Below are positions 8,790 to 37,112 of a DNA stretch of 38,991 bases, piece after piece. The stretch comes from Acidimicrobiaceae bacterium (lineage in GTDB: Bacteria > Actinomycetota > Acidimicrobiia > Acidimicrobiales > Aldehydirespiratoraceae): the NCBI GenBank assembly GCA_009843735.1, contig VYCW01000037.1:1-38991 (forward strand), in the 5' to 3' direction. Made by a program: the position numbers and the translations under genes. Each line of letters starts with the position of its first letter. Within the stretch, counting starts at the first letter, position 1. Under the pieces are notes generated by a model, which was not told the DNA's origin, searched no databases, and was given only the letters and a program-made list of their open reading frames with translations.

Positions 8790-8808
8790 TGCAGAATATA
8801 TGATCTGC
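8790..8808. promoter_or_regulatory. Shared AT-rich operator-like element, site A
   Basis: TGCAGAATATATGATCTGC lies in the divergent gap between the ThDP enzyme and the PhyH dioxygenase. The GCAGA and TCTGC ends form an inverted repeat, with seven of nine pairs matching over the 18 bases from 8791. It also contains TATGAT, which could serve as a -10 box. It matches sites B and C closely (TGCA-N2-ATATATGAT). Confidence 0.55.
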
Positions 8809-8849
8809 CGTGGCCGGGCAGCCACGGCAGAGGCAACCGAGAGGTGTGA

Positions 8850-9728
8850 ATGACCCTGACTCCCGGCCAGGTGGAGGCCTACCGCAACGACGGCTACGTC
8901 GTGGTGCGCAGCGCGCTACCGAAGCGGAGTGTCTTTCTGCTCCGGGAGGCCGCCGACAGCTTCGCAGAGCAGGCGTCGCGGCTGAGCGGCGACACGGACG
9001 CGATCGAGCTTGACGACGCGGCTGCTCTCGACGGTGGGCTGGCCCGGATCCGCCGGATCAAGAGCCCTCACCTCCACCACGAGTCCTTCGCGGCCATGCT
9101 GGCCCACCCGCCGCTGCTGGACATGGTGGAGGCGCTCATCGGCCCTGACATCCGCTGGCACCACACCAAGCTCAACGCCAAGCAGCCGTGCGGATCTGGT
9201 CATGTGGAGTGGCACACCGACTGGGGCTACTACCCCCACACCAACGACGACCTGCTGGAGATCAGCATCGCGCTCGACGCCTCCACCGAGTCCAGCGGCT
9301 GCCTCAGGGTGGTTCCCGGCTCGCACTGGGGCCCGGCCCTCAGCCACACCGAGAACGGCCGGTTCGTGGGCGCGGTGGCGCCGGGCAGCTTCGACCCGCA
9401 GGCCGCGGTGAGCCTGGAGCTCGAGCCCGGAGACATCTCCATCCATCACGTCCGCCTGCTCCACGGCTCGGGCCCGAACCGCAGCCGGTGCCAGCGCAGG
9501 CTGCTCCTTCAGGGCTACGCCGCGGTGGACGCATGGCCTCTGATGGCCCAGCATCAGCCGTCGGACTGGCCCGCCTGGGACGACCGGATCCTGCGGGGAC
9601 GGCCCTCGGTGGAGGCCCGGCTGGCGCCGTGCCCGGTGAAGGTGCCGCTGCCGGTGGCGCCTGCCCTCGGCCTGTACGAGATCCAGCGCGGCTTGAGCCG
9701 CTCGCACTTCGTCGAAGCCTCGCACTGA
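8850..9728 (+). CDS. Phytanoyl-CoA dioxygenase (PhyH) family Fe(II)/2-oxoglutarate oxygenase
   Basis: The 292-residue protein has the iron-binding facial triad of the PhyH family: H122 and D124 in the HxD motif of VEWHTDWGYY, and the distal H205 in LLHGSGPNRS. An arginine a few residues later is the likely 2-oxoglutarate contact. PhyH enzymes hydroxylate small organic substrates or acyl-CoAs using O2 and 2-oxoglutarate, releasing succinate and CO2. The ATG at 8850 is preceded by GAGAGG at a good distance. A mandelate-racemase-type gene starts 14 bases after the stop, so the two are probably co-transcribed from the promoter at site A and act on one substrate. Confidence 0.93.
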   Translation: MTLTPGQVEAYRNDGYVVVRSALPKRSVFLLREAADSFAEQASRLSGDTDAIELDDAAALDGGLARIRRIKSPHLHHESFAAMLAHPPLLDMVEALIGPDIRWHHTKLNAKQPCGSGHVEWHTDWGYYPHTNDDLLEISIALDASTESSGCLRVVPGSHWGPALSHTENGRFVGAVAPGSFDPQAAVSLELEPGDISIHHVRLLHGSGPNRSRCQRRLLLQGYAAVDAWPLMAQHQPSDWPAWDDRILRGRPSVEARLAPCPVKVPLPVAPALGLYEIQRGLSRSHFVEASH

Positions 9729-9742
9729 CGGATCGAAGCGCT

Positions 9743-10834
9743 TTGGAGGACCTGACGATCTCCGGCGTGGACGCGACGGCGCTGAGGCTGCCGCTGGCCA
9801 GGCCCATCGCCAGCGCGCTGGGCCGATACTCGCACGTCGACTGCACCGTCGTGGACGTCCACACCCGCAACGGTCCCAGCGGCCAAGGCTTCACGGCCTG
9901 CCTCGGCGGCTCGGCCGGCGCCGCCGTCGCCCTCTACATCCGGGACGAACTCGCGCCAGCGGTCGTCGGCGGGAGCGTCCTGGCCCCGGAGGCGCTCTGG
10001 CACAGGGCCTGGGGACCCAACAAGGCCCGCCAGCGTGGCGGCATCGGGGCGTGGGGGCTCTCGGCGCTCGACACGGCCGTGTGGGACGCCCTGGCCCGCC
10101 ACGCCGGACTGCCGCTGTGCACAATGCTCGGCGGCTACCGCGACCGCGTGCCCGTCTACGGCAGCGGCGGCTGGCACACCCTCACCGATGACGAGTTGGT
10201 GCAGGAGTGCCAGCGGTTCGCGGCCCAAGGAATCAAGGCCTACAAGTACAAGATCGGCACAACCCGTGACGAGGCCCGCACGGCCCGGCTGCGTAACGCT
10301 ATGGGCGACAGCTTCGCACTGCTCGCCGACGCCAACCAGTGCTACAGCGTGCGCGAGGCGGTGGCGGTGGGCGAGATGCTTGCCGACTACGGCGTGGTCT
10401 GGCTGGAGGAGCCGGTCGTGGCCGATTCCGTTGACGACCTCGCCGAAGTCGCAAAGCGCAGTCCCACTCCCACCGCCGCCGGCGAGAACGCCTACTTCCG
10501 CTGGGGCTTCCGCGAGATCGTGGAGCGGCGCGCCGCGGCGTTCCTGCAGCCCGACATCGGCCGCTGCGGTGGAGTCACCGAGTTCCGCAAGATCGGCGCG
10601 CTCGCCGACGCCGCCGGCCTGGCGTTGAGCAGCCACCTGTGGCACGAGCTGTCGATCAGCCTGGTGGGGGCATTCTCGTCGGGCTGGGCATGCGAGTACG
10701 CCGAGTTCATCCCAGACGGCGCGCTGACCCGGTCATTCGACGTGGTCGACGGCGCCATCGAGATCCCGAACGCGCCGGGGCACGGGGCGGAGTTCACGCC
10801 CGAGGCGCGCCGAGAATTCTCAGTCGAGTACTAG
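9743..10834 (+). CDS. Mandelate racemase/muconate lactonizing family enzyme, mandelate-racemase subgroup
   Basis: About 363 residues of an enolase-superfamily enzyme, which removes the proton next to a carboxylate to racemise or dehydrate an acid. The KxK acid/base motif is K168 and K170 in YKYKIG. Metal ligands are D196 (ADANQCY), E222 (WLEEP) and E248 (AGENAY). The His-Asp dyad of the mandelate racemase subgroup is D271 (QPDIGRCGG) and H298 (SSHLWHE). The start is uncertain: TTG 9743 is used here, GTG 9767 is possible, and family alignment places the first strand at about 9752-9770. GGAGG at 9745-9749 supports a start near 9755-9767. It follows the PhyH gene in the same transcript. A dehydratase of a sugar acid or other hydroxy acid is plausible. 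Confidence 0.9.
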   Translation: MEDLTISGVDATALRLPLARPIASALGRYSHVDCTVVDVHTRNGPSGQGFTACLGGSAGAAVALYIRDELAPAVVGGSVLAPEALWHRAWGPNKARQRGGIGAWGLSALDTAVWDALARHAGLPLCTMLGGYRDRVPVYGSGGWHTLTDDELVQECQRFAAQGIKAYKYKIGTTRDEARTARLRNAMGDSFALLADANQCYSVREAVAVGEMLADYGVVWLEEPVVADSVDDLAEVAKRSPTPTAAGENAYFRWGFREIVERRAAAFLQPDIGRCGGVTEFRKIGALADAAGLALSSHLWHELSISLVGAFSSGWACEYAEFIPDGALTRSFDVVDGAIEIPNAPGHGAEFTPEARREFSVEY

Positions 10835-10871: not shown

Positions 10872-11393
10872 TCAGGGCTGGCCGAACGTGGAGACCTTGT
10901 CCACCCGGCACTCGAACAGCACCCGGCGCTCGTCGATGGACGGATCGCGCAGGCCGTAGGGCGGCTCCGCGCCGGTGTACTTCGTCCAGATCCCGTCGAG
11001 CTGCTCGGTGACCCGGGCGCCCTCGGAGGGGTCGTCCTCGGAGATCTCCCGCTCCACGGTGATCTTCATCGACACCCAGTGGTACGGGTTCTGCGGGTTG
11101 ATGAGGATCAGCGAGATCTCCGGGCTGCTGCGGATCCACGCCGTCTTCTTGCGATGCGCGGCCACGTTGACCAGCACCTTGTCCCCGGCGTAGTCGAACC
11201 ACATCGGGGTGAGGCTGGGCCGGCCGTCGGCACCGATCACCGACACCACCGCGGTGACCTGCTCGTCGAGCAGCCGCTTGTAGATGGGGTCGAGCTCTTC
11301 GAGACTCTCGATCTCGCTTCGTCCCCCGATCCCGAACTGGCCGGCCTGCAAGCCGGCCGACACATCCAGGAACTGGTACAGCCTGATCGCCAT
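10872..11393 (-). CDS. PPOX-class (pyridoxamine 5'-phosphate oxidase-fold) flavin/F420-binding protein
   Basis: The 173-residue product has the split-barrel fold features of the family: VTAVVSVIGADGRPSLTPMW near the N-terminal third, followed by GDKVLVNVAAHRKKTAWI and ISLILINPQNPYHWVSM. Members bind FMN or the deazaflavin F420 and reduce or oxidise small molecules, and F420-type members are common in actinobacteria. I chose ATG 11393 rather than ATG 11399 because AAGGAG then lies six bases upstream; with 11399 it would touch the start codon. It is the last gene of a five-gene minus-strand run containing a luciferase-like oxidoreductase, another flavin- or F420-dependent family. Substrate and cofactor are unknown. 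Confidence 0.85.
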   Translation of the reverse strand: MAIRLYQFLDVSAGLQAGQFGIGGRSEIESLEELDPIYKRLLDEQVTAVVSVIGADGRPSLTPMWFDYAGDKVLVNVAAHRKKTAWIRSSPEISLILINPQNPYHWVSMKITVEREISEDDPSEGARVTEQLDGIWTKYTGAEPPYGLRDPSIDERRVLFECRVDKVSTFGQP

Positions 11394-11449
11394 TGTCATC
11401 TCCTTGCCGTCGGGATCAGCGTCGAACCTATAGCCCGTCTTGAGGTGGT

Positions 11450-12466
11450 CTACCAGTGGACCATCGGCAGTCCCGCCACCGGGCTGCGGAAATAGGGAAT
11501 CCGGGTGCCTCGCAGGCTGCCCACATAGACCGTGCGTAGGTCATGACCCCCGAAAGTGACGCTGGCGGTCCACGGGGCGATAGTGCCGCCCGCGGCCAGC
11601 ATCAACTCGGAAGTGGCCTCGTCGCGGTGGAATGCGTCGAGGAACGCCTGTCCCGCCTCAGAGCCCCGGTCGTCGTCGAGGAGGATGCGGAGGTCCCCGT
11701 CCGGCGTGATCGCGAAGATGTGGTCGTTGAATACATGCGTGCCCCACAGGTTGCCGAACGAGTCGAAGGCGATGCCGTCGATCAGGGCACCGGTGTCGGA
11801 CGGACCGAACACCTCGTAGCCGGCGAGGGAGCCGTCGGGCAGCACCCGCATGCGGCTGACCCGCTTGCCGCAGGTCTCGGCGATGTACATCCACTCCTCG
11901 TTGGCGTCGAGGCGTATCTCGTTCGTGAACGCCAGCCCGTCGGCCACCACGCGGATGCCCTGCTCGTCGACCAGCACGATCCGGCCGTCGGCGACGTTGG
12001 GGCTGATCGCCTCCATCCAGTTGGTGATCATCGTGGAGACCGTCATGTAGATCCGGTCCCTGGAGTCCCGGATCACGAAATTGACCTTGCCGATCGCCTG
12101 GCCGTCAACCGAGTCGTGCACGACTGTGGACTCGCCGGTCCGGGTCATGCGCTCAAGCCGGTCGGTGCCGAAGTTCGATATCAGGATGTCGCCGTTGGAC
12201 GCGAACGCCAGCCCGTTGGGGAGGGTGCCGGTGGTGAACCGTTCGGCGTCGTCGACCGCGTCGGAGAACCGGGTGTCGGCTTCCTGGAGGATCAGCTCCT
12301 GCGCTCCGGTGGCGGTGTCCATGCGCACGACGCCGCCCCTGGCGTCGGCGGACCACAGGGTGCCGTCGCGCTCGGCGAGTATGCACTCGGGCCGCTGCAG
12401 GCCCTCACCGACGTAGCCGATGCCGGCCGGGTCGACCTCGAAGCCGTCGATCGGGTTGGTGGCCAT
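11450..12466 (-). CDS. SMP-30/gluconolactonase/LRE-family lactonase
   Basis: A 338-residue six-bladed beta-propeller protein of the SMP-30 family, which hydrolyse sugar lactones or other lactones using a divalent metal. Family motifs are the metal-ligand glutamate in RPECILAERDGTLWSAD near the N-terminus, LPNGLAFASNGDILISNFG in the middle, and DGIAFDSFGNLWGTHVFND toward the C-terminus. No signal peptide is visible. The start lies two bases after the stop of the luciferase-like gene and lacks a strong ribosome site, so it is probably translated by coupling. A ring-opening role is natural: the flavin enzyme next door could make a lactone by Baeyer-Villiger chemistry and this protein could open it. 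That pairing is inference. Confidence 0.9.
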   Translation of the reverse strand: MATNPIDGFEVDPAGIGYVGEGLQRPECILAERDGTLWSADARGGVVRMDTATGAQELILQEADTRFSDAVDDAERFTTGTLPNGLAFASNGDILISNFGTDRLERMTRTGESTVVHDSVDGQAIGKVNFVIRDSRDRIYMTVSTMITNWMEAISPNVADGRIVLVDEQGIRVVADGLAFTNEIRLDANEEWMYIAETCGKRVSRMRVLPDGSLAGYEVFGPSDTGALIDGIAFDSFGNLWGTHVFNDHIFAITPDGDLRILLDDDRGSEAGQAFLDAFHRDEATSELMLAAGGTIAPWTASVTFGGHDLRTVYVGSLRGTRIPYFRSPVAGLPMVHW

Positions 12467-12468
12467 CG

Positions 12469-13719
12469 TCAGGGTGCGTTTGGCGCAGTGGCCGGGGAGG
12501 GAGCCGCGTCGAAGTCGGGGACGTCGAGGCAGGGAAGAACCTCTTCCATGAACAGGGTCAGCTCCTCGGCCACCTCGTCCTTGGGTATCTGCGCGTAGTG
12601 CCAGATCAGGGTGATGTACTCCGCCGGCACCTGCTCCACCAGTTGCTGCCAGGCCTCGACGGACTGTTCCACGGTGCCGCCGATGAAGATGTCGGACTCC
12701 TTCATGGCGGCGATGTGGTCGGTGCCCGGCTCGTTGGGGAACTGCGGGAAGAACGGCCCGTAGAAGTTCTGGTAGATGTCGAGGTCGTAGTCGTGGAGCC
12801 TGCGGTCGTACTCGGCCGCGGTCGGGGTGATGTGGGGCCAGCGCACCACGTTCTGGCGCTCCCCGTGACGGCGGTCGATCCCGGCGGCGGCCGCGGCCTC
12901 CACATACAGATGCGAGTGCTCGGCGATGGCCTTGATGGGCATGAAGTAGGTGGGGATGAAGCCCCGCTCAGCGCAATAGACGATGGTCTCGGGGCTCTTA
13001 CTGGTGGCCACGAACACCGGAGGGTGGGGCAGCGTGTAGGGCTTGGGCACCACCGACACCCGCCTCACGGCCCCGGCCGCGTCCACCTCCCCGGACGTGC
13101 CGGCCCGCGACGCGATGCGGCGGGCCGGATAGTCCAGCACCCCGGTCTCGTAGGGGAAGGGCACCTCGTAGCTGTTGCCCTTGAACTCGAGCGACTCCTC
13201 GGTCCAGCACTTCAGGAGCATCTCGGTGCGCTCCTCGAAGAGGTCGCGGTTGCGCCAGTCCTCGTCGCTCTTGTCGCCGAGCGCGGCCACTGCACCGCCG
13301 TGCTGGCCCAGGATGTTGGTCCAGCGCGACTGGTAGCCGCGGGCCAGGCCCACGAAGAACCTGCCCCGGGTGAGGTGGTCGAGGATGGCGGTCTCCTCGG
13401 CCACCCGTATGGGGTCCTGGGTGGCCATCACATAACCGAGTGAGCCGATGTAGGCGTTCTTGACCATCGAGGCCCAGTAGCCGTTGAGAACACCGGGGTT
13501 CGGGCCGACCTCGTAGCCCTCCGAGTGCAGGTGGTGCTCGATGGTGCTGATTCCCCACACTCCCAGGTCGTCGGCGAGGTGCACGAGGTCGGTCCAGTCG
13601 TGCAGCACCTGGTGGTAGAGGTCGCGGTCGCGGCCCAGGGGTGCGGCGGCGATGCGCCCCTCCATCCCGTCCGCCGGAAGCATCGGGTAGATCTGGATGA
13701 TCACCTTGGGGCGGGCCAC
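12469..13719 (-). CDS. LLM-class flavin-dependent oxidoreductase (luciferase-like)
   Basis: The 416-residue protein belongs to the bacterial luciferase-like TIM-barrel family, which uses FMNH2 or F420H2 for monooxygenation or hydride transfer. Visible family features include WGISTIEHHLHSEGY with the paired histidines near 60, the segment PIRVAEETAILDHLTRGRF followed by VGLARGYQSRW, and PPVFVATSKSPETIVYCAER. The GTG at 13719 has GGAGG seven bases upstream. It lies in the middle of a run with a cyclase and an alpha/beta hydrolase upstream and an SMP-30 lactonase and a PPOX protein downstream. A 101-base gap before it holds a weak copy of the AT-rich element (site E), so it may have its own promoter. 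The substrate is unknown. Confidence 0.9.
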   Translation of the reverse strand: MARPKVIIQIYPMLPADGMEGRIAAAPLGRDRDLYHQVLHDWTDLVHLADDLGVWGISTIEHHLHSEGYEVGPNPGVLNGYWASMVKNAYIGSLGYVMATQDPIRVAEETAILDHLTRGRFFVGLARGYQSRWTNILGQHGGAVAALGDKSDEDWRNRDLFEERTEMLLKCWTEESLEFKGNSYEVPFPYETGVLDYPARRIASRAGTSGEVDAAGAVRRVSVVPKPYTLPHPPVFVATSKSPETIVYCAERGFIPTYFMPIKAIAEHSHLYVEAAAAAGIDRRHGERQNVVRWPHITPTAAEYDRRLHDYDLDIYQNFYGPFFPQFPNEPGTDHIAAMKESDIFIGGTVEQSVEAWQQLVEQVPAEYITLIWHYAQIPKDEVAEELTLFMEEVLPCLDVPDFDAAPSPATAPNAP

Positions 13720-13749
13720 TGTTCAGCCTCCTGCACAGCCGAAGAATCG

Positions 13750-13768
13750 TGCACCATACATGGTCTTG
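13750..13768. promoter_or_regulatory. Degenerate copy of the shared AT-rich element, site E
   Basis: TGCACCATACATGGTCTTG lies 31 bases upstream of the luciferase-like gene in a gap between same-strand genes. It contains ACCAT-AC-ATGGT, an inverted repeat with five-base arms, and keeps the TGCA-N2-ATAnATG outline of sites A to C. It is a weaker match than those. Confidence 0.35.
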
Positions 13769-13820: not shown

Positions 13821-14765
13821 CTACTTGATGGCCTGCGGGTTCAGGGGCGAGCCCACCGCGCCCGGGATCACCAGGCCCGGCGCCACCAGCTGGAACTCGT
13901 AGACACCGTCGGCTGCGCAGTCGGCGGCCAACTCGTCGAGGTACCAGATCTCACCGACCAGCAGGCCCATGCTCACCACCATCACCAGGTGCAGCGGCTG
14001 GAAGCTCCCCTCGATCTCGTTGGGCCTGACCTCCGCGCCCCAGGTGTCGGTGGCCAGCGCGGCGATCTCCCGCTCCGCCAACCAGGGTGCGGCCAGCAGC
14101 GACAGTCCGGGCGAGTCGCCGGCCGAGTAGCCATCCCAGCCGGGCAGTTCCCGCCGGCGGGCCATGTCGCCGGTGCGGACCAGCACCATGTCACCGGTGC
14201 CTACCTCCACGCCGTGGGCCTCGCAGGCTTCGTCAAGAAGGTCGGCGCCGATGGCGAAGCCGGGCTCCAGATGGTCGACGCCGACGACCCTGGGGATGTC
14301 CAGCAGCACACCCCGGCTCACCACCGTCTTGACGTTCTCGATGCCGTTGCGGGCCGCGCCGCGGCTGTCGACCAGGCCGGCGTCGTAGCCGTTGTACATC
14401 TTGCCGTCGTGGAAGATGTGGGCCAGGGCGTCCCACTGCGTGCCACCCTGCAGGAACAGGAACAGGGTGTCGTCGGCGACTCCCCACCCCATGGGCCAGC
14501 CCTGCGTGCCGGCGACATGGTCGGTGCCGGTGGCCACCATCTGGTGAACCGCGTTGACCCGGCCGAAGGCCCCGGTCTGGGGGCCGTTGCCGTCGAGGGG
14601 AAGTTCCAGCGAGAACACCTTGCCCTGCTTCACCAGCCGGGCCGACTCGGCGACCTTGGCGGGCGTGATGAAGTTGAGGGTGCCGAGCTCGTCGTCGTCC
14701 CCCCAGCGCCCCCAGTTGCGGTAGCGGGCGCAGTAATCGTCGAGCAGGTCGGTGTTGATGTCCAT
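13821..14765 (-). CDS. Cyclase family protein (PF04199, kynurenine formamidase-like fold)
   Basis: The 314-residue protein matches the metal-dependent cyclase/hydrolase family that includes kynurenine formamidase and isatin hydrolase. The family motif HxGTHxDxPxH appears here as QGGTQWDALAH at about 106-116, so the first two histidines are replaced by glutamine while D112 and H116 remain. Such GTQWD variants form a longer subgroup within the family, and the total length fits that subgroup. The ATG at 14765 has GGAGA upstream. It sits 36 bases after the alpha/beta hydrolase gene in the same run. An amide, imide or lactone ring hydrolase is the natural guess. The exact reaction and metal are unknown. 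Confidence 0.88.
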   Translation of the reverse strand: MDINTDLLDDYCARYRNWGRWGDDDELGTLNFITPAKVAESARLVKQGKVFSLELPLDGNGPQTGAFGRVNAVHQMVATGTDHVAGTQGWPMGWGVADDTLFLFLQGGTQWDALAHIFHDGKMYNGYDAGLVDSRGAARNGIENVKTVVSRGVLLDIPRVVGVDHLEPGFAIGADLLDEACEAHGVEVGTGDMVLVRTGDMARRRELPGWDGYSAGDSPGLSLLAAPWLAEREIAALATDTWGAEVRPNEIEGSFQPLHLVMVVSMGLLVGEIWYLDELAADCAADGVYEFQLVAPGLVIPGAVGSPLNPQAIK

Positions 14766-14801
14766 GGCAGGTCTCCGATCGTTGGTGAACGGGTCGTCTC
14801 C

Positions 14802-15584
14802 TCACCGTTGGAGGTGACGGGTCAGGAAGGCGTCGACCGCGGTCGCGAGGGCCGCCGGCTGCTGTAGGGGCGGGCAGTGACCGCAGTCGTCGAGGATCAC
14901 CAGCTCGGCTCCGGCTATGGATGAGGCCAGTTCGGCGGACATCTCCGGTGGGGTGGTGGCGTCCGCGGATCCTCCGATGACCAGGCTGGGGGTGGTGATC
15001 CGACCAAGGTCGGGGCGCAGGTCCATGGCGTGCAGGGCCCGGCAGCAGGACGCGAATGAGGCGGGATCGATCTCCAGGAGCACCTGGCGCCTCTCGTCGA
15101 TCACTTCGGGATGGGCGGCCAGGTAGTCCTCGGGGAAGATGCGCTGCACCGCGGTCTCGACCACTGCAGCCATGCCCGCCTCCGATACCAGGCGGCTCAT
15201 GGTCTCGAAGGCTCCCCGGCGATCCTCGGAGAAGACCGCGCCTCCGTTGGCGACGATCAACGGCCCGGAGTCGGAGCCACCTGCGATGGCCATGGCAACC
15301 GCGACGAAGGCACCCAGCCCGTTGCCCAGCACGGCTGTGTCCGACCCCGCTCCGGTTTCCGCCATCGCCTCGGACACCATTCCGGCCAAGTGGAAGAGGT
15401 CGGGGGAGCCATCTGGAGTGAGAGGCGGCGAGGGGCCGAACCCCGGGAGCCAGGCGCGGTGCAACCGGTAACGGCCGGACAGCGTCGCCGCGACGGCGTC
15501 GTAGGCGCGGGCGTCGGTCAGCAGCGAATGGATCAGCACCAGCGGCGGACCCTCGCCCGACGAATCGATGTGCACTGCGGGCAA
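14802..15584 (-). CDS. Alpha/beta hydrolase-fold protein lacking the usual nucleophile
   Basis: The 260-residue protein has the alpha/beta hydrolase layout: the oxyanion loop after LVLIHSLLTD, the nucleophile elbow GNGLG at 87-91, the acid D208 in GGSADATTPPE and the histidine H236 in DDCGHCPPL. The elbow should read GxSxG or have Asp or Cys in the middle, but the central residue here is Gly (codon GGG at the expected Ser position). The protein may therefore be a non-hydrolytic member, such as a cofactor-free decarboxylase/lyase-type enzyme, or inactive. The start is TTG 15584, supported by GGGAGGA five bases upstream. It is the first gene of the five-gene run and divergent from a CaiB gene, with repeats between them. 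Confidence 0.85.
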   Translation of the reverse strand: MPAVHIDSSGEGPPLVLIHSLLTDARAYDAVAATLSGRYRLHRAWLPGFGPSPPLTPDGSPDLFHLAGMVSEAMAETGAGSDTAVLGNGLGAFVAVAMAIAGGSDSGPLIVANGGAVFSEDRRGAFETMSRLVSEAGMAAVVETAVQRIFPEDYLAAHPEVIDERRQVLLEIDPASFASCCRALHAMDLRPDLGRITTPSLVIGGSADATTPPEMSAELASSIAGAELVILDDCGHCPPLQQPAALATAVDAFLTRHLQR

Positions 15585-15630
15585 GCCGTCCTCCCGAGTC
15601 GCTCAGATCGCAAGGTTGGCCCCGGATCGT

Positions 15631-15685
15631 GCAAAATGCAATATCGGCGCAAGATTCAATGTGGACGCAAAATGCAATATCGGCG
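15631..15685 (+). repeat. Triple 18-bp tandem repeat in a divergent promoter gap, site F
   Basis: GCAAAATGCAATATCGGCG occurs exactly at 15631-15649 and again at 15667-15685. The stretch between (15649-15667) is a degenerate third copy with 14 of 19 matching bases. The period is 18, close to two helical turns, so copies would face similar sides of the DNA. The array lies between the alpha/beta hydrolase start (15584) and the CaiB start (15704). The first copy begins with TGCAAAAT, echoing the TGCA-N2-AT outline of the other sites. An iteron-like operator is the likely role. Confidence 0.6.
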
Positions 15686-18113: not shown

Positions 18114-18169
18114 GTCCCCACCCGGCTCCTCACGCGAACAGAAGCTAGTGGCCAAGCCCCGCGGGACGC

Positions 18170-29119: not shown

Positions 29120-29195
29120 GTTCGCTCCTTGAGGGTTCTTGGTAGTCCGGTTGGTTGCCCGAGACCGATCGGGTCTCCCGAAGTCTGTCGGAGGG

Positions 29196-30209: not shown

Positions 30210-30278
30210 TCACTACTCCCGGCCGGCCCGGATGGCCGCATTCGCTTATCCGCCGAGCCCAGTTGGTGGCGCGGATGA

Positions 30279-30297
30279 TGCATCATATATGATGCTG
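30279..30297. promoter_or_regulatory. Perfect operator-like palindrome, site C
   Basis: TGCATCATATATGATGCTG contains a perfect 16-base palindrome, GCATCATATATGATGC, at 30280-30295. It is the best-formed member of the shared AT-rich element and lies about midway between two divergent amidohydrolase genes. TATGAT at 30288-30293 could also act as a -10 box. A dimeric regulator such as a GntR-type protein would fit, but no regulator gene is in the window. Confidence 0.6.
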
Positions 30298-30376: not shown

Positions 30377-31267
30377 TTGACCACGTCCCTGCCCCAATGC
30401 CTGGCGCCGACCCGTGCGCCCCGCCGGCCCGACACCATGCTTCCCGCCGGCAGCGTCGACACCCATGTGCACGTGTTCGACGGCCGTTACCGGCTGTCGC
30501 CCCAGCGAGGCTACGACCCGCCCGATTCGAGGTTGGAGCACATGGTGGCCATGCACAAGGCCATCGGCATCGAACGGGTCGTGTTCACCCAGCCCTCCAT
30601 CTACGGCACCGACAACGGCGCCATTCTCGATGGTTCCGATGCGCTCAACGAGGCAACGCCGGGCCGGGCCCGCAGCGTGGTGGCGGTCGGAAGCGACGTG
30701 AGCGACCGGGATCTGGCTGCCATGCACGCCCGGGGTGCGCGCGGCGTGCGCCTCAACACCGACAACGTGGGCGGCATGCCCATCGACTGGGACGATCTGC
30801 CCGAACTGTGCAGGCGCATCGCTGGAATGGGCTGGCACGTGGAGTTCCTGTTCCCGGGGCGCGACATGGTCGAGCTCGCGCCGCTGATCGCCTCGCTGCC
30901 GGTTCCCGCCTGCATCGGCCATTTCGCCTACCAGCCCGCAGCCGACGGAGTGGAGGCCGACGGCTTCCAGGCCCTGCTGGCCCTGCTACGGGGCGGGAAC
31001 ACCTGGCTGAAGATCTCCGGCGCCGACCGGGTCAGCGCAGCCGGTGGGCCCGGCTACGACGATGTCGCCCCGCTGGCGGAGGCCGCCCTTGAGGCCAACC
31101 CCGAGCGGATCATGTGGGGCACCGATTGGCCCCATCCCAACAAGTACGACGCCGGGCTGGTGCCCGACGAGGGCGACCTGGTCGACACCCTCGGGTCGTG
31201 GGTCAGCGATCCCGACCTACTGAGACGCATCCTCGTCGACACTCCCGAGCAGTTCTACGGCTTCTGA
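30377..31267 (+). CDS. Amidohydrolase family protein, 2-pyrone-4,6-dicarboxylate hydrolase (LigI)-like
   Basis: About 296 residues of a PF04909 protein resembling LigI-type lactonases. Near the N-terminus is GSVDTHVHVFDGRYRLSPQ with the HxH pair, then RGYDPPD, FTQPSIYGTDNGA and ARGARGVRLN. The C-terminal part has PACIGHFAY, WLKISGADR and IMWGTDWPHPN with the catalytic aspartate. LigI opens the ring of 2-pyrone-4,6-dicarboxylate without a metal. The start is uncertain: TTG 30377 is used, but ATG 30437 would still leave the whole fold and neither has a good ribosome site. It is divergent from an ACMSD-like gene and convergent with an MFS transporter that could import its substrate. Confidence 0.87.
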   Translation: MTTSLPQCLAPTRAPRRPDTMLPAGSVDTHVHVFDGRYRLSPQRGYDPPDSRLEHMVAMHKAIGIERVVFTQPSIYGTDNGAILDGSDALNEATPGRARSVVAVGSDVSDRDLAAMHARGARGVRLNTDNVGGMPIDWDDLPELCRRIAGMGWHVEFLFPGRDMVELAPLIASLPVPACIGHFAYQPAADGVEADGFQALLALLRGGNTWLKISGADRVSAAGGPGYDDVAPLAEAALEANPERIMWGTDWPHPNKYDAGLVPDEGDLVDTLGSWVSDPDLLRRILVDTPEQFYGF

Positions 31268-31293: not shown

Positions 31294-32532
31294 CTAGCCG
31301 GCTGCGCCTGCGGGGTTCGACACCGCCCGCCGCACCGGGATCCAGGCCAGGGCCAGAACGCCTGTGATGGCCGCAGCCGACCAGAACGGCACTGAGGGGC
31401 CGAAGGTGTCGTAGATCATCGAACCGGCCGGGGGTCCGCTCACCTGGCTCAGCCGGATGATCGTCACCCAGAACAGAACGGTCAGACCACGGTAGGCCTG
31501 CCCGCCCACGGTGGCCGCGAAGGCTTGAGCCTGGGGCACGAAAGCCCCGAACCCGAAGCCGCACACTGCCAGCCCGGCTACCACTGACCCGGCTGAGGCG
31601 GCCAGTGCTGTGATTGCTGAACCGACCGCCATCAAGGCGAAGGAGGCGGTGACCAGGTTGGCCTTGCCGATCCAGTCGATGAGCATGCCGATCCGGACCG
31701 CGGCCAGCACAATCCCCAACTGGAACGAGGCGATGAACACTCCTCGGGCGGCCACCTCGATACCGAACTCGTCGTCGAGCAATAGCGGTACCACGGTGAG
31801 GCCTAGGCCGTGCAGCAGGTATGTGGCCACGAACGTGGCTGCCAGCACTCCGGCGTAGTCGGCGAGGGTGCGCTCGCGGCGCATGGTGGTCAGCGCGGCA
31901 CGCAAGTGGCGCAGGGGCCGTTCGGCAGCAATCTCGGGCCGGTCGCCCGGCATGCGGCTGGCCCAAGCGGCCAGGGGAATCCCGATTAGGAAGATGAGGA
32001 ACGGCCGGAAGATGCCACCGATGGCCAGCAGTCCGGCGACCACCGGGCCCAGCAGCGATGTCATCTGCAGCCCGGTCATGTTGATGCCCATGGCTCTGGT
32101 GCGGGCGTCACCCTCGAAGGAGTCGGCGATCAGCACGATGCCGACGCCCAGGATCCCGGAGGTGCCCACCCCCTGAAGGAAGCGCACCGCTACCAGCGCC
32201 CAGAAGGAGCGGGCGAAGAACCCGGCCACGCCGAACGCCGAGAAGAGCGCCAGCGCGCTCAGCACCACCCGGCGCCGACCGACGCGGTCGGCCAGATACC
32301 CGATGATGGCCGAGAACATCACCCCGGCGAAGGAGATGGAGCCCTGCACCAGTCCGATGGAGCCGCGGGACACGCCGAAGGCGTCGGCCAGGTCGGGCAG
32401 GATGGGTGCGGTGACCGAGAAGCCGAGGGTACCCATGGCGCCTACTGCGATGGCGATGGACAGGCGCTCGTAGGGTCTGGTGGCCGTGCCGAAGGGTCGG
32501 CTCAGACGGGCGGTCAGGCTCACAGGGATCAT
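31294..32532 (-). CDS. Major facilitator superfamily transporter
   Basis: The 412-residue protein is highly hydrophobic with about 12 membrane segments. The loop 2-3 signature is GYLADRVGRRRV, and the first segments include GFSVTAPILPDLADAFGVSR. It looks like a drug:H+ antiporter-type or organic-acid permease, and the direction of transport cannot be read. The ATG at 32532 lies inside the AT-rich palindrome at 32530-32544 and has no ribosome site; GTG 32523 is an alternative. A leaderless transcript or the later start is possible. The next gene on the minus side is convergent (the LigI-like hydrolase), and a crotonase operon is divergent, so it may serve either. Confidence 0.9.
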   Translation of the reverse strand: MIPVSLTARLSRPFGTATRPYERLSIAIAVGAMGTLGFSVTAPILPDLADAFGVSRGSIGLVQGSISFAGVMFSAIIGYLADRVGRRRVVLSALALFSAFGVAGFFARSFWALVAVRFLQGVGTSGILGVGIVLIADSFEGDARTRAMGINMTGLQMTSLLGPVVAGLLAIGGIFRPFLIFLIGIPLAAWASRMPGDRPEIAAERPLRHLRAALTTMRRERTLADYAGVLAATFVATYLLHGLGLTVVPLLLDDEFGIEVAARGVFIASFQLGIVLAAVRIGMLIDWIGKANLVTASFALMAVGSAITALAASAGSVVAGLAVCGFGFGAFVPQAQAFAATVGGQAYRGLTVLFWVTIIRLSQVSGPPAGSMIYDTFGPSVPFWSAAAITGVLALAWIPVRRAVSNPAGAAG

Positions 32533-32545
32533 ATATAATATATGT
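32528..32545. promoter_or_regulatory. AT-rich palindrome overlapping the MFS start, site H
   Basis: CATATATAATATATG at 32530-32544 is a perfect 15-base palindrome with a single central A. On the minus strand it reads into ATATATGATC, the core of the shared element. It lies between the divergent MFS and crotonase genes and includes TATAAT on the plus strand (32534-32539), a consensus -10 box. Operator and promoter roles may coincide. Confidence 0.55.
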
Positions 32546-32624
32546 CCACATCCCGTCGGCGTGCTCCGCGATGCCTCGGCAGGCTGGCCGCGCCACCTCG
32601 GAGCACTTGGAGGTTCTCAACACC

Positions 32625-33494
32625 ATGCCGTACCAAGAGATCGTCTTCGAAGTCCGCGACGACGCGGCCTGGATCGGTATCAACCGCCCCGAGGTCCGCA
32701 ACGCCTTCCGTGAGCAGACCCTCGATGAGATAGCCGACGCGCTCAACTCCACCCGGGAGGACCCCACTATCGTCGCCGCGGTGGTGTACGGGGTCGGCGG
32801 CCACTTCTCGGCCGGCGGCGACTTCCACGCCATGATGAAGCTCAACAAGGCCAACTCGTACATGTGGAACGACCGGATGCAGAAGGTGGCCATGACCTGC
32901 CGCAACCTTCCCATCCCGGTGATCGCCATGGTCGAGGGCGCCTGCGTGGGAGGCGGCCACGAGCTGATGCTCTGGTGCGACCTCGTCGTCGCGGCGGAGG
33001 ACTCCATCTTCGGTCAGACTGGCGCCCGGGTCGGCGCCTGTCCCACCGTCGGGGCGACCCAGTACATCGGCAAGCTCATCGGCGAGCGCAGGGCCAAGGA
33101 GATGATCTTTCTGTGCAAGCGGTACTCGGGCGCGGAAGCGGCCGACATCGGGCTGGCCAACGAGGCCGTTCCCGCGGCCGAGCTGCTCGCCCGTGTCGAG
33201 GAGGTGGTGGCCCAGATCAAGGGCTACAGCTCCCAGACGATCCGGTCCACCAAGGTCTCGCTCAACTTCGACAGCGACGCGCTGTACCCGTCGTGGCAGC
33301 ATGGAATGGAGCTGCTGGCCAACATCTGGGGCACCGAGGAGTCCCTGGAGGGCATGAACGCCTTCCTGGAGAAGCGCCCGGCCGACTTCCACCAGTTCCG
33401 GAAGCGAAACCGGGCCGCGCTCGACGCCTACATGGACGACTTCTCCGAGGGCCGCAACCAGAGCGAGTCCTCCCGCCGGGCCCGGGAGGGATGA
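32625..33494 (+). CDS. Enoyl-CoA hydratase/isomerase family protein, MenB/BadI-like
   Basis: The 289-residue crotonase-fold protein has the first oxyanion-hole segment HFSAGGDFHAM and the second CVGGGHELMLWCDLVVAAED, followed by SIFGQTGARVGA and RAKEMIFLCKRYSGAEAADI. The IFGQTG and FLCxxY stretches resemble dihydroxynaphthoyl-CoA synthase (MenB) and 2-ketocyclohexanecarboxyl-CoA hydrolase (BadI), which form or open a carbocycle. The Gly-Tyr-Gly segment usual after VGS in those enzymes is replaced by ACPTVGATQ. The ATG at 32625 is favoured by GGAGG at 32609-32613, 11 bases upstream; an in-frame ATG at 32571 lacks a site. CaiB and ACMSD-like genes follow, so a CoA-dependent ring-degradation route is plausible. 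Confidence 0.9.
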   Translation: MPYQEIVFEVRDDAAWIGINRPEVRNAFREQTLDEIADALNSTREDPTIVAAVVYGVGGHFSAGGDFHAMMKLNKANSYMWNDRMQKVAMTCRNLPIPVIAMVEGACVGGGHELMLWCDLVVAAEDSIFGQTGARVGACPTVGATQYIGKLIGERRAKEMIFLCKRYSGAEAADIGLANEAVPAAELLARVEEVVAQIKGYSSQTIRSTKVSLNFDSDALYPSWQHGMELLANIWGTEESLEGMNAFLEKRPADFHQFRKRNRAALDAYMDDFSEGRNQSESSRRAREG

Positions 33495-33560
33495 CCGCGA
33501 TGCCGGCGCGGGCCCGCCGGTACCCGCGTCGCCGCGGCCCAGTGCAGGACGGCTGAGAGC

Positions 33561-34763
33561 GTGCCAGAGGGTGCGCTGGACGGGGTCCGGGTGGTGGACC
33601 TCACCCGGGTGCTGGCCGGCCCGCTGTGCGCCATGTGGCTCGGCGACATGGGAGCCGACGTCATCAAGGTCGAGCGGCCCGGCTCCGGCGACGACACCCG
33701 GGCCTGGGGCCCGCCGTTCGCGGGAACCGAAGCCGCCTACTTCCTAGGAGTCAACCGCAACAAGCGGAGTCTCACGCTGGACCTGGGTCAACCCCGGGGC
33801 CTGGAGATCCTGGCCGAGCTGATCCGGGGCGCGGACGTTGTGCTGGACAACTTCAAGATCGGCACCCTCGACCGGTGGGGCTTCACCGACGAGTGGTACG
33901 CCGAGGAGGCGCCGGCCGCGGTGCGAGCCACCATCTCTGGCTACGGATCCACCGGTCCCAAGGCGGCCATGCCGGGCTACGACTTCATCCTGCAGGCCGA
34001 GACCGGTCTCATGGCCATCACGGGCGAGCCCGACGGCGAGTCGATGAAGCTGGGGGTGGCCATCGTGGACGTCTGCACCGGGATGCTGGCCGCCATGTCG
34101 GTGCTGGGCGGGCTGGCGGCCCGCGGGCGCACCGGCAAGGGACAGCGGATCGAGCTGTCGCTGCACGACACCGGACTCCAGATGCTGGCCAACGTGGCCG
34201 CCAACCACCTGGTGAGCGGGGCCGAGGCAGTCCGCTACGGCAACGGCCATCCCAACATCGTGCCCTACCGGACCTACCCCACCGCCGACGGCGAGTTAGT
34301 GGTGACGGTGGGCAACGACACCCAGTTCGCCCGGTTCGCCCAAGTCCTGGGCTGCGACGGGTGGTCCTCGGACCCTCGCTTCGCCCGCAACGCCGACCGG
34401 GTCGCCAACCGCGACCTGCTCGACGGCCTGATCCGCGACCGCATGGTCACCCGCACCCGGACCGAGTGGAGCGCCGACCTCGAGGCCAACGGCATTCCCT
34501 GCGTGCCGATCAACTCGGTCGCCGAGGCGCTGGCTTCGCCGCAGACGACGGCTCGGGGCATGGTGACCACCGTCGCGCACCCCACAGCAGGCGAGGTGGC
34601 CCTCACCGGAGTGCCATTCAGGATGTTCGGCACGCCCGCCGCCATACGCCGACCGCCCCCCACGCTGGGCCAGCACAGTCGCGAGGTGCTGGCGAGCGAG
34701 TTGGGGCTCGACGCTGCCACGATCTCGGAGCTGGTGGCCGCCGGGGTCACCACCGTCGAGTGA
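33561..34763 (+). CDS. CaiB/BaiF family CoA-transferase
   Basis: The 400-residue protein is a class III CoA-transferase. It begins LDGVRVVDLTRVLAGPLCAM then WLGDMGADVIKVERPGSGDD. The catalytic aspartate lies in AMPGYDFILQAETGLMAITG, and GNGHPNIVPYRTYPTADG is a family segment. It differs clearly from the CaiB at 15704, so it probably has another acid substrate. The GTG at 33561 is 66 bases after the crotonase stop, and the gene probably belongs to the same transcript. The ACMSD-like gene starts 64 bases after its stop. It could load CoA on the acid processed by the crotonase. Confidence 0.94.
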   Translation: MPEGALDGVRVVDLTRVLAGPLCAMWLGDMGADVIKVERPGSGDDTRAWGPPFAGTEAAYFLGVNRNKRSLTLDLGQPRGLEILAELIRGADVVLDNFKIGTLDRWGFTDEWYAEEAPAAVRATISGYGSTGPKAAMPGYDFILQAETGLMAITGEPDGESMKLGVAIVDVCTGMLAAMSVLGGLAARGRTGKGQRIELSLHDTGLQMLANVAANHLVSGAEAVRYGNGHPNIVPYRTYPTADGELVVTVGNDTQFARFAQVLGCDGWSSDPRFARNADRVANRDLLDGLIRDRMVTRTRTEWSADLEANGIPCVPINSVAEALASPQTTARGMVTTVAHPTAGEVALTGVPFRMFGTPAAIRRPPPTLGQHSREVLASELGLDAATISELVAAGVTTVE

Positions 34764-34827
34764 GTTCCCAGAGCCCGACCGACGCCGGCCCGCAGCCGCG
34801 GGCGACCACGACCATCAAGGAGTCGCC

Positions 34828-35913
34828 ATGACCGCAGCCGAATCCGAAGCGCCGGCCGAGTGGTGGCCCGAGCTGGGGCCCAGATGGGAGCGGTCGGCCG
34901 CGCCCAAGCCGCCGTGCCTGTGCATCGATGTGCACTCCCACCTGTCCGTGCCGGCGGCCTCGGCACTGGCCAAGCCGCACTTCTCGCCCGAGATGGACCC
35001 GCGCTCGTTCTTCTCGCCGCCCGAGAGCCTCCGCTACAACCGGGAGCTGCGCAGCCAGCCCGAGATGGTGGCCAAGTTCGAGCAGGCCGAGGCCCGAATC
35101 GAGGACATGGACAAGCAGGGCATCGACATGCAGATCCTGTCGGTGTCGCCCGGCGAGTACTTCTACTGGCTCGACGCCGAGCACGCGGTCAAGGCCTGCC
35201 GCCTCCAGCATGAGCGGCTCGCCGAGGTGGTGGCCCAGCACCCGGAGAGGTTCGCGGCGGTGGCCAACCTGCCCATGGACCATCCCGAACTGGCCGTCGA
35301 GGTGATGGTCGAGGCCCGCCGGGACTTCGGCATGGGCGGCTTCGAGATCAACGCCGACGTCAACGGCGGCGACCTCGACAACCGCCGCTACGACCCGGTG
35401 TGGGAGAAGGCCGTCGAGCTGGGCATGACCGTGATCATGCATCCCCAGGGGTTCACCCACGGCCAGCGGATGGACGACTACTACCTGGTCAACGTGGTGT
35501 GCATGCCGCTGGCGTCCACGCTGGCGGTATCCCGCATGATCCTGGGCGGGGTGTGGCACCGCCACCCCGAACTCCAGATGGTGGTGGTCCATGGCGGCGG
35601 CTACCTGCCCTACTACTTCGCCCGCACCGACCACGCCTACGGCGTGCGCCCCGAACTGCGCCGCCACATCGACCGCAAGCCCAGCGAGTACCTGCGCAAG
35701 CTGCACTTCGACACCACGGTGTTCGAGCCGGGAATGGTCGAGTACCTGGTGGAGACCTTCGGCGACACTCAGGTCCTGCTCGGGACCGACTACCCGTTCG
35801 ACATGGGCCCCACCGACCCCATGGCCTTCCTGGCCGAGGCCCGGCTTACAGATCAGTCCCGAACCCGGATCCTGGGAGCCAACGCAGCCCGCCTGTTCGG
35901 GATCGGGGACTGA
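34828..35913 (+). CDS. Amidohydrolase 2 family protein (ACMSD-like)
   Basis: The 361-residue protein is a paralogue of the gene at 29196. The metal-binding HxH is H36 and H38 (CIDVHSHLS), a further histidine is in VIMHPQGFTHGQR, HGGGYLPYYFARTDHAYG follows, and D321 lies in VLLGTDYPFDMG. ACMSD-type enzymes decarboxylate or hydrolyse ring-cleavage products such as carboxymuconate semialdehydes. The ATG at 34828 has AAGGAG six bases upstream. It is the last gene of the crotonase-CaiB-amidohydrolase run, with 43 bases to a convergent gene. The substrate is unknown, but a role in breakdown of a cyclic acid fits the neighbours. Confidence 0.93.
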   Translation: MTAAESEAPAEWWPELGPRWERSAAPKPPCLCIDVHSHLSVPAASALAKPHFSPEMDPRSFFSPPESLRYNRELRSQPEMVAKFEQAEARIEDMDKQGIDMQILSVSPGEYFYWLDAEHAVKACRLQHERLAEVVAQHPERFAAVANLPMDHPELAVEVMVEARRDFGMGGFEINADVNGGDLDNRRYDPVWEKAVELGMTVIMHPQGFTHGQRMDDYYLVNVVCMPLASTLAVSRMILGGVWHRHPELQMVVVHGGGYLPYYFARTDHAYGVRPELRRHIDRKPSEYLRKLHFDTTVFEPGMVEYLVETFGDTQVLLGTDYPFDMGPTDPMAFLAEARLTDQSRTRILGANAARLFGIGD

Positions 35914-35956
35914 GTCGGCGAGTGGTCCCCCGCGGCCCTACGGCCCTTGGAGGCGG

Positions 35957-37063
35957 TTACCGGTCGGTCCGGTAGCGGCTGAGGGACTCCTCGTCGATCC
36001 GTACGCCCAGGCCCGGCTCATCGGAGGGATGCAGATGGCCGGCGACGGGAAGGAACCGCTCGGTGACCACGTCGTCGGTGATGTAGTGGGGCGAGATGCC
36101 CGATCCGAAGCGCAGGTTGGGCACGGCGAGGGCCAGGTGGGCGGCGTGGGCCGCGCCGATGCTGGTCTGTCCGGCCATGCCGGCGAAGTGCACTCCGATC
36201 CCGGCTTCGTCGGCCACCGAGAACATCTCGCGCACTCCGAGCGGTCCGGCCGCCTTCATGAGCTTGGCCACCACCGCGCCGACCGCGCCCACGGCCAGGG
36301 CGGTGCGCAGTCCGTTGGCGTCGAAGATCCCCTCGTCGGCGGCCACCGTCACCGGGCTCGCCGCGTTCAGGCGGGCCATTCCCAGCAGGTCCCACCGGGG
36401 CAGGGGCTGCTCCACGAAGCCCGGGTCGGCCTCCGCCACGGCCTTCAGGTACCGCATGGCTTGGCTGTGGTCCCATCCCTGGTTGGCGTCGGGCAGCAAC
36501 TCGACGCCGGGACCCACCGCGTCCCGCACCGCGAGGGTGGCGGCAATGTCGTGTTCCACGTCGGCGGAGCCGACCTTGATCTTCACCAGGGGGAAGCCCT
36601 CCGAGGCCGCCTCGCCCGCCTCGTTCGCCAGCGAGGCGGGCGTGCCCCCGCTCACATGCCAGATGGTGGGCACCGAAGGGCGGCGGCGGCCGCCGTAGAA
36701 CTCGTAGAGGGGAACGCCCGCGGCCTGGGCCACGACATCGTGCAGGGCCATCTCCACTGCGGCCCGGGCGGCGTTGTTGCCGACGATGATCCGGGCCATC
36801 AGGGTCCTCAGCCCGATGAGATCGCAGGGATCGCGGCCTGCCAGCGCCCCGGCCAGCACGCCACCGATGAGGTCACTGGCCGAGGCCAGGCTCTCGCCGG
36901 TGAAGTACCGGGCCACCACGCTCTCGCCGATGCCGACGACGCCGTCGTCGGTGGTCACCCGGGCGATGATGCAGGTCCGGACGTCGACGGTGGCCACTGC
37001 CATCTGCAGCGGTCGTTTGAGCGGCAGCTCGACTGGTATCGCCTCGAGGCGTTCGATCCGCAA
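35957..37063 (-). CDS. Enolase-superfamily enzyme, muconate lactonizing subgroup
   Basis: The 368-residue product has the MLE-type active site: KxK at K161 and K163 (VKIKVGS), metal ligands D192 (PDANQGW), E218 (FVEQP) and D243 (AADEG), and the second-side lysines K267 and K270 (AKLMKA). The N-terminal MRIERLEAIPVELPLKRPL is the usual capping domain start. The start codon is TTG 37063, with GGGAGG eight bases upstream. It is divergent from a TauD-family dioxygenase and shares an AT-rich element (site D) with it. This repeats the pairing of an Fe/2-oxoglutarate oxygenase with an enolase-superfamily gene seen at 8850-10834. Cycloisomerase, epimerase and dehydratase activities are all possible. 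Confidence 0.92.
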   Translation of the reverse strand: MRIERLEAIPVELPLKRPLQMAVATVDVRTCIIARVTTDDGVVGIGESVVARYFTGESLASASDLIGGVLAGALAGRDPCDLIGLRTLMARIIVGNNAARAAVEMALHDVVAQAAGVPLYEFYGGRRRPSVPTIWHVSGGTPASLANEAGEAASEGFPLVKIKVGSADVEHDIAATLAVRDAVGPGVELLPDANQGWDHSQAMRYLKAVAEADPGFVEQPLPRWDLLGMARLNAASPVTVAADEGIFDANGLRTALAVGAVGAVVAKLMKAAGPLGVREMFSVADEAGIGVHFAGMAGQTSIGAAHAAHLALAVPNLRFGSGISPHYITDDVVTERFLPVAGHLHPSDEPGLGVRIDEESLSRYRTDR

Positions 37064-37093
37064 GCTCCGCTACCTCCCAGCCCGCACCTATCG

Positions 37094-37112
37094 TGCAAAA
37101 TATAGGATTGAT
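37094..37112. promoter_or_regulatory. Copy of the shared AT-rich element, site D
   Basis: TGCAAAATATAGGATTGAT lies between the divergent MLE-type and TauD genes. It keeps TGCA-N2-ATATA and GAT but has AGG where sites A to C have TG. It may include the -10 box TATAGG. Confidence 0.45.

What the first reader, a model, noticed from the sequence alone, without database searches (positions are those of the whole stretch)
8790..37112. One AT-rich, partly palindromic element recurs in seven of eight divergent gaps: a possible local regulon
Seen directly: TGCAGAATATATGATCTGC (8790), TGCAACATATATGATCAGC (24009), TGCATCATATATGATGCTG (30279), TGCAAAATATAGGATTGAT (37094), TGCACCATACATGGTCTTG (13750), TGCAAAATGCAATATCGGC (15630), plus ATATATG cores at 18176 and 32538. 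All but 13750 lie between divergently transcribed catabolic genes. The only divergent gap without it is 3914-4058. In DNA this GC-rich, repeats of TGCA-N2-ATATATGATC at so many module boundaries are unlikely to be chance. One dimeric regulator may switch many unrelated-looking catabolic modules together. Part of the signal may be divergent -10 boxes (TATGAT), so promoter and operator roles need separating. No regulator gene is in the window.
Basis: partly seen in the sequence, partly recalled or inferred. Interest (0 to 1): 0.78.

Follow-up and report, generated by a model that had tools for sequence, protein, structure and literature searches.

The report
Shared operator of a catabolic island
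A 21-letter mirrored DNA switch site recurs in front of many different degradation genes in one stretch of an uncultured bacterium's genome, and the likely matching switch protein is found beside the same genes in related genomes, so one signal may control a whole block of food-processing pathways.

Summary
All eight listed places are one 21-bp pseudo-palindrome, GATCATRYATNATRYATGATC. Seven lie in seven of the window's eight divergent gaps and one in a tandem gap. With each gap held out of the model in turn, every site still stands out (at most 0.005 chance hits expected per 39 kb).

The element is local: 7 of 9 near matches in the 3.43-Mb genome lie on this 39-kb contig. In more distant congeners the 21 bp are 89% identical and the flanks 53%.

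The likely regulator is an FCD-type GntR protein encoded in the same island of relatives, about 13 kb past where the window's contig ends. Among 16 congeners it occurs in 7 of 8 with the motif cluster and 0 of 8 without. The missing case is the window's own incomplete genome. Independently, the motif lies upstream of distant homologues in other actinobacterial families and a cyanobacterium.

Best reading: a dimeric FCD-GntR regulator, probably a repressor, controls about 15 transcription units. The operator departs from the published consensus, and the protein seems to lack FadR's two G-reading arginines. Binding, effector and sign are untested.

The parts
8785..8805 (.). operator 1 (34.9 bits), divergent gap TPP enzyme <-> PhyH dioxygenase
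13745..13765 (.). operator 2 (19.9 bits), tandem gap upstream of luciferase-like monooxygenase operon; the least conserved of the eight
15625..15645 (.). operator 3 (25.4 bits), divergent gap alpha/beta hydrolase <-> CoA-transferase III
18172..18192 (.). operator 4 (31.1 bits), divergent gap FAD monooxygenase <-> aldehyde dehydrogenase
24004..24024 (.). operator 5 (28.9 bits), divergent gap mandelate-racemase-like enzyme <-> Ldh_2 dehydrogenase
30274..30294 (.). operator 6 (32.2 bits), divergent gap between two amidohydrolases
32527..32547 (.). operator 7 (31.9 bits), divergent gap MFS transporter <-> enoyl-CoA hydratase
37089..37109 (.). operator 8 (27.8 bits), divergent gap mandelate-racemase-like enzyme <-> TauD dioxygenase
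7047..8732 (-). TPP-dependent enzyme, predicted target of operator 1
   Evidence: Pfam; sub-threshold NCBIfam matches to acetolactate synthase-like families
8850..10834 (+). PhyH dioxygenase and mandelate-racemase-like enzyme, predicted target of operator 1
   Evidence: Pfam
10872..13719 (-). luciferase-like monooxygenase, SGL-like protein, PNPOx-like protein, predicted target of operator 2
   Evidence: Pfam
13821..15584 (-). alpha/beta hydrolase and cyclase-family protein, predicted target of operator 3
   Evidence: Pfam
15704..16903 (+). CoA-transferase III (start moved to ATG 15704 with full AGGAGG), predicted target of operator 3
   Evidence: Pfam
16917..18155 (-). FAD-dependent monooxygenase-like protein, predicted target of operator 4
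   Evidence: Pfam
18218..20483 (+). aldehyde dehydrogenase and SDR, predicted target of operator 4
   Evidence: Pfam
20500..24006 (-). mandelate-racemase-like enzyme and aldehyde dehydrogenase, predicted target of operator 5 (listed ORF start overlaps the site; ATG 23925 more likely)
   Evidence: Pfam
24044..26888 (+). Ldh_2 dehydrogenase, FAH hydrolase, MoCF/CinA-KH protein, predicted target of operator 5
   Evidence: Pfam
26904..30209 (-). amidohydrolase and two GFO/IDH/MocA oxidoreductases, predicted target of operator 6
   Evidence: Pfam
30377..31267 (+). amidohydrolase, predicted target of operator 6
   Evidence: Pfam
31294..32532 (-). MFS transporter, predicted target of operator 7 (listed start overlaps the site; ATG 32436 more likely)
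   Evidence: Pfam
32571..35913 (+). enoyl-CoA hydratase, CoA-transferase III, amidohydrolase, predicted target of operator 7
   Evidence: Pfam
35957..37063 (-). mandelate-racemase-like enzyme, predicted target of operator 8
   Evidence: Pfam
37128..38231 (+). TauD-family dioxygenase (frame as scanned; start codon unsettled, candidates GTG 37146 and 37167), predicted target of operator 8
   Evidence: Pfam

Best explanation
The element is the operator of a local regulon. A homodimeric FCD-type GntR regulator binds the 21-bp dyad, one subunit per GATCATRYAT half. Because the dyad sits between divergent genes, near both starts, one bound dimer can switch two transcription units. When a small organic acid from the island's substrates binds the FCD domain, the regulator releases (repression) and about 15 transcription units in the window, plus more beyond it, come on together. 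The regulator gene is in the same island in relatives, about 13 kb past the window's right end, and is missing from the incomplete window assembly. Shown: one shared, local, conserved dyad; co-occurrence with the regulator gene; the same motif upstream of several distant homologues of that regulator. Inferred: binding, repression rather than activation, dimer stoichiometry, the acid effector, and the regulator's presence in the window's own cell.
For: One motif: the matrix gives eight sites in the window and each held-out gap is recovered. Local. Conserved: all 8 gaps keep a site in G010, G008 and G001; in 26 orthologous rows from five more distant congeners, identity to the window is 0.890 in the 21 bp (546 cells) against 0.533 for 40 bp either side (2080 cells, alignment gaps counted as differences), and 0.37 for the flanks when aligned without gaps on the site. 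Regulator: P0001 carries GntR plus FCD domains. Orthologues at 75-100% identity occur in G010, G007, G008, G002, G001, G013 and G005, and the next best homologues are at most 39%; in 51 family genomes only these 7 have it at E up to 1e-35. Recognition-helix residues 53-71 are invariant in all 7. Out-of-sample: the matrix, trained on the genus only, scores 9 bits or more within 400 bp upstream of 8 of 12 homologues with the recognition signature LxQ[ASK][DE], against 1 of 32 other GntR genes. A palindrome search without the matrix ranks the motif site first upstream of L138 (9/9 arm pairs), L189, L191 and (tied) L194, second in L190, and not in the other 6 of 11 tested. A site between the two starts fits the published position of single sites in FadR-type divergons (PMC4494728 section 15).
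Against: The regulator gene is absent from the window's own genome assembly (best homologue 39%), as is the adjoining stretch searched. In the island it has no site in front of it: best scores -6.6 to 5.1 bits in the 6 of 7 orthologues examined; the nearest site in G010 is 1.1 kb downstream. Congeners lacking the regulator also lack the tested island DNA, apart from one gene in G011, so the 7/8 against 0/8 pattern may be one evolutionary event; G012 is counted as lacking the motif although it has one isolated 29.7-bit match. The recognition signature was chosen after part of the homologue data had been seen; several of the 12 and most of the 32 are orthologues of one another, so they are not independent. 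4 of 12 signature homologues lack an upstream site (L193, L169, the second L194 gene, L139); L169 has a 21.4-bit site 1.4 kb downstream of the gene, the L194 locus carries two others, L193 has only weaker matches kilobases away (15.0 bits), L139 none. One control gene (L192, 13366) scores 10.3. A tree does not unite all signature genes with support. The operator does not fit the published FadR consensus.
Confidence: 0.8

Rival explanations
1. The element is a symmetric, AT-rich divergent promoter (back-to-back -10 boxes) and not a regulator's operator.
For: The dyad contains TATGAT/TATATG-like steps in both directions and its centre lies 27-117 bp from the start codons I judge plausible.
Against: It is local, not genome-wide. 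It also occurs in tandem gaps (13745; G010 16478 and 29019). No second conserved block shows at a fixed distance within 70 bp either side. Gap 3914-4058 lacks it.
Confidence: 0.07
2. The dyad is an operator, but for a regulator other than P0001 that is unlinked or unrecognised.
For: The regulator gene is not in the window assembly. P0001 orthologues lack an upstream site. A few island ORFs gave no Pfam match or were not scanned.
Against: P0001 is the only one-component transcription regulator found among the G010 ORFs scanned (NusG and a sigma factor lie at the edge). Several distant homologues have the same motif upstream.
Confidence: 0.11
3. The dyad is a recombination or insertion site at which catabolic modules are exchanged.
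For: Sites sit between modules. In G007 the Ldh_2 gene is absent starting a few bases after a site, and the pair flanking site 37089 is missing with its site.
Against: The G008 inversion breaks at convergent gene ends, not at sites. No recombinase was found among the scanned window ORFs. Outside the genus the motif lies upstream of GntR genes.
Confidence: 0.02

Closest known systems
FadR/FCD subfamily of GntR regulators and their divergon operators (Suvorova et al. 2015, PMC4494728; abstract, section 9 part 1, section 15 and passages seen)
   Same: GntR HTH plus FCD domain; palindromic AT-rich single site between divergent operons; catabolic targets.
   Different: Published consensus is TKGT/ACMA with GT and AC 3 or 2 nt apart. 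Here the RY steps in the comparable place are 5 nt apart and often not GT. P0001 has Ala45 and Thr55 where FadR Arg35 and Arg45 should align (paper's HTH positions 28 and 38 by its Table 1 numbering; alignment by eye with recalled family consensus).
Atu1419 of Agrobacterium fabrum, tetrameric FCD-GntR regulator of a hydroxycinnamate-degradation region (PMC7797058; passages seen)
   Same: FCD-GntR, catabolic region, identical repeated palindromes; ATGTAT/ATACAT resembles ATRYAT here; its sites overlap -10 boxes.
   Different: Its 10-bp ATGTATACAT has no central spacer base and Arg45 reads an essential G. Here the dyad is 21 bp, odd-centred, and no G is invariant.
PhnR-type phosphonate regulator family TIGR03338
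   Same: Best NCBIfam match of P0001 (126.4 bits).
   Different: Far below the curated cut-off of 271.5 bits; not a member.

Membership tests
FCD-type GntR regulator (protein P0001, in relatives) | N-terminal GntR winged HTH and C-terminal FCD domain, both above Pfam cut-off | tested here: met
   FCD 101 bits (cut-off 24.3), GntR 52.9 (cut-off 27)
FCD-type GntR regulator (protein P0001, in relatives) | Recognition-helix Arg (FadR Arg45) and Arg35 reading G; typical of the family, not strictly defining | tested here: not met
   alignment A2: Ala45 and Thr55 in all 7 at the places aligned by eye; contact roles from PMC4494728 and PMC7797058 passages
FadR-subfamily operator | Palindrome with TKGT/ACMA boxes, GT and AC 2 or 3 nt apart | tested here: not met
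   matrix: offset -4 is G or A, -3 is C or T, -2 is A; for the consensus
[quoted passage not shown]
   distances with start codons of my choice; rule; met only approximately, no regression done
FCD-GntR regulon | Regulator gene linked to regulated genes | tested here: met
   relatives only: a site and the gene share a contig in G010, G007, G008, G001 (C51), G002 (C37), G013 (C147), G005 (C98)
FCD-GntR regulon | Regulator gene present in the window's own genome | tested here: inconclusive
   absent from an assembly 84.6% complete that also lacks the adjoining stretch searched
FCD-GntR regulon | Direct binding and effector response | not testable with these tools
   needs experiment

The most novel reading that the evidence does not exclude
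One FCD-GntR protein without the family's arginine readout governs an entire 45-60 kb island through at least eleven similar operators. As a tetramer it bridges them into loops, so the island is silenced or opened as one folded domain, and incoming catabolic modules are kept only once they carry the operator.
Probability: 0.15. Interest if true: 0.75.

Novelty: new variant of a known kind. Interest (0 to 1): 0.5.

Why it matters
These uncultured Acidimicrobiia (probably sponge-associated, from recalled bin names) carry a large block of poorly defined catabolic enzymes. A shared operator says which genes are likely used together, gives a handle on the substrate through the regulator's effector, and offers a regulator-operator pair that can be tested in vitro without culturing the organism. 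It also points to a GntR branch that may read DNA without the expected Arg-G contacts.

Tried and rejected

ECF-like sigma factor at G010:C19:8171-8833 as regulator: set aside because it lies near NusG at the edge of the catabolic genes and would not by itself explain a dyad; its distribution was not tested.

Hit L169:10695 (20.3 bits) near the Nonomuraea GntR: it lies in an exact loxP site, an engineered scar, and is not counted. A natural-looking site at L169:9984 (21.4 bits) is just upstream of the neighbouring MFS gene.

The two off-contig matches, C16:11366 and C63:4058, score 13.1 and 9.8 on the matrix; the G006 match scores 12.3. G012:C3:1547 scores high (29.7, 26.8 with the 21-column matrix) in an AT-rich stretch and is left unexplained. 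L032 and L034, matches in two genomes outside the genus, reach 21.3 and 21.0 bits and were not followed up.

Footprint used only orthologous gaps where a site had been found, so it cannot show site loss. G010 and G008 rows were aligned but left out of the averages as too close. G007:C71:423 (16.1 bits) was not used.

Homologue test, what went in: all 14 matches, 5 of 15 records, 2 non-orthologous loci of the 10, and 23 of the 31 non-orthologous matches (those given a locus). The tree used 39 of those 51 genes and orthologues.

Paper searches for the motif: GntR, FCD, operator, ATACAT, palindrom, any four (13 papers) and spelled-out TGTAT-N-ATACA variants (1 unrelated paper). For the organism group: 0 papers; 1; 15 of 61 listed; 0. 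From titles and abstract starts none describes this regulon. (16 papers) led to the two papers read in part.

NCBIfam (9 window proteins and P0001): only one match passed its curated cut-off, an unnamed monooxygenase subfamily, so no substrate is claimed.

The solved-structure search only confirmed FCD-GntR relatives. No structure was predicted.
Full report
WHAT IS THERE. Comparing orthologous loci from congeners showed that each belongs to a 21-bp pseudo-palindrome with a single central base, GATCATRYATNATRYATGATC. A symmetric matrix refined on the window and the loci of five relatives (49 distinct sites, many of them orthologous) returns eight non-overlapping window sites above 9 bits: 8785, 13745, 15625, 18172, 24004, 30274, 32527 and 37089. 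Seven are in divergent gaps and one in a tandem gap. The eighth divergent gap, 3914-4058, has none (best score -4.9).

MORE THAN CHANCE. Leaving each gap out of the matrix in turn, the held-out site still scores 19.7-31.2 bits. No place away from the sites scores as high, and 0-0.005 hits are expected per 39 kb, judged from 200 second-order Markov sequences. The two off-contig matches score 13.1 and 9.8 bits on the matrix.

CONSERVATION. G010, G008 and G001 keep a site in all eight gaps. Over 26 orthologous rows from G001, G002, G005, G007 and G013, identity to the window is 0.890 inside the 21 bp and 0.533 in the 40 bp either side, alignment gaps counted as differences. Anchored on the site without gaps, the flanks fall to 0.37 and no second block shows at a fixed distance within 70 bp. 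By gap, site identity runs from 0.71 (13745) to 0.95. Only gaps with a found site were used, so this measures constraint on sites kept, not retention. Aligned DNA over the island is 83-93% identical in G001, G008 and G010 (main blocks).

WHICH GENOMES. A sequence-only model of the site searched in 16 congeners hits G000, G001, G002, G005, G007, G008, G010 and G013, plus one weak hit in G012 (E 2.8), and none in the other seven at E up to 10. All eight G008 rows lie within 568-606 kb of one 619-kb contig. Island DNA (window 29150-38240, E up to 1e-60) is found in the same eight genomes; G011 alone has one further relative, a CoA-transferase region at 81%, with no site on that 14.6-kb contig (best 9.5 bits).

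THE REGULATOR. No regulator was recognised among the 33 window ORFs scanned. In G010 the island continues past the window's right end, with three more sites (16478, 23713, 29019). There G010:C19:17612-18283, about 13 kb beyond the window's end by the alignment, encodes a 224-aa protein with GntR and FCD domains. Orthologues at 75-100% identity occur in seven congeners, which are the motif-bearing ones except the window's own genome; the next best homologues are at most 39% identical. Among 51 family genomes the same seven alone have it at E up to 1e-35. Named records identify these as Acidimicrobiia metagenome assemblies, one called Candidatus Aldehydirespirator catecholifindens, and RHO3_bin_35 adds a further case with both gene and sites. 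That they are sponge-associated is recalled from bin names and comes from no call. The window's assembly (84.6% complete) lacks the adjoining stretch searched, so absence of the gene there is probably a gap in assembly, but this is inference. Because island, motif and regulator come and go together, the co-occurrence alone could be one event. No site lies within 400 bp upstream of the regulator in the 6 of 7 orthologues examined.

INDEPENDENT TEST. The matrix was trained only on the genus. Applied to distant homologues of the regulator from other actinobacterial families, a plasmid-collection search and other phyla, it scores 9 bits or more within 400 bp upstream of 8 of 12 genes with the recognition signature LxQ[ASK][DE], and of 1 of 32 other GntR genes, most of them same-genus paralogues. 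The signature was defined after the first homologues had been seen, so the contrast is partly post hoc, and related genes are counted apart. Misses: L193, L169, the second L194 gene, and L139. A palindrome search that does not use the matrix ranks the motif site first upstream of L138, L189, L191 and (tied) L194, second in L190, and not in L188, L192, L193, L195, L169 and L139. In the cyanobacterium one perfect copy of the 19-bp palindrome TTCATATATGATATATGAA and one near-perfect copy lie in front of the regulator gene. A tree does not place all signature genes in one supported clade.

HOW IT WOULD WORK. Sites lie between the starts of divergent genes, their centres 27-117 bp from the start codons I judge plausible, near the position reported for single sites in FadR-type divergons (PMC4494728, section 15). 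One dimer there could control both sides. Repression with release by an organic acid is a common FCD mode, recalled and inferred here. The operator differs from the published TKGT/ACMA consensus: the RY steps in the comparable place are five bases apart and often not GT. The protein has Ala45 and Thr55 in all seven orthologues where, aligned by eye, FadR Arg35 and Arg45 should fall (the paper's HTH positions 28 and 38). Arg45 reads an essential G in Atu1419 and is called a typical family feature (PMC7797058 passages). Loss of those arginines together with loss of an invariant G is consistent, not proof.

VERDICT. It is a new variant of a known kind. Substrate, effector and sign of control remain open.

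Noticed in passing
window 430-2730 and 2690-3913: One ORF joins a Peripla_BP_6 binding protein to a BPD_transp_2 permease, next to a second binding-protein copy; both copies match the same G001 stretch, suggesting a tandem duplication or fusion.
   Followed up: no
G008:C15:579513-588421 (window 26878-35950): About 9 kb of the island is inverted in G008 relative to the window, with breakpoints at convergent gene ends and the operators intact.
   Followed up: partly
window 24030-25174 versus G007:C37:5948-5967: The Ldh_2 gene is missing in G007 just beyond operator 5, which is kept; the module around operator 8 is missing there together with its site.
   Followed up: partly
L138:3061-4140 and 10500-11642: The cyanobacterial FCD-GntR homologue lies between two AtzD/TrzD-family ring-opening amidohydrolase genes, with the operator-like palindrome twice in front of it.
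   Followed up: partly
L169:10691-10724: An exact loxP site in the Nonomuraea gerenzanensis record, an engineering scar that mimics the motif.
   Followed up: yes
L166:1547-1567 (G012:C3): A high-scoring match (29.7 bits) to the operator in a congener without the regulator, in an AT-rich stretch.
   Followed up: partly
L032 and L034 (G016:C19, G039:C36): Isolated 21-bit matches to the operator in two genomes outside the genus; their neighbours were not examined.
   Followed up: no
window 24044-25183, 7047-8732, 37128-38231: Matches well below cut-off to sulfolactate dehydrogenase and sulfoacetaldehyde acetyltransferase families in the same island as a TauD dioxygenase; a weak lead towards sulfonate use.
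   Followed up: no
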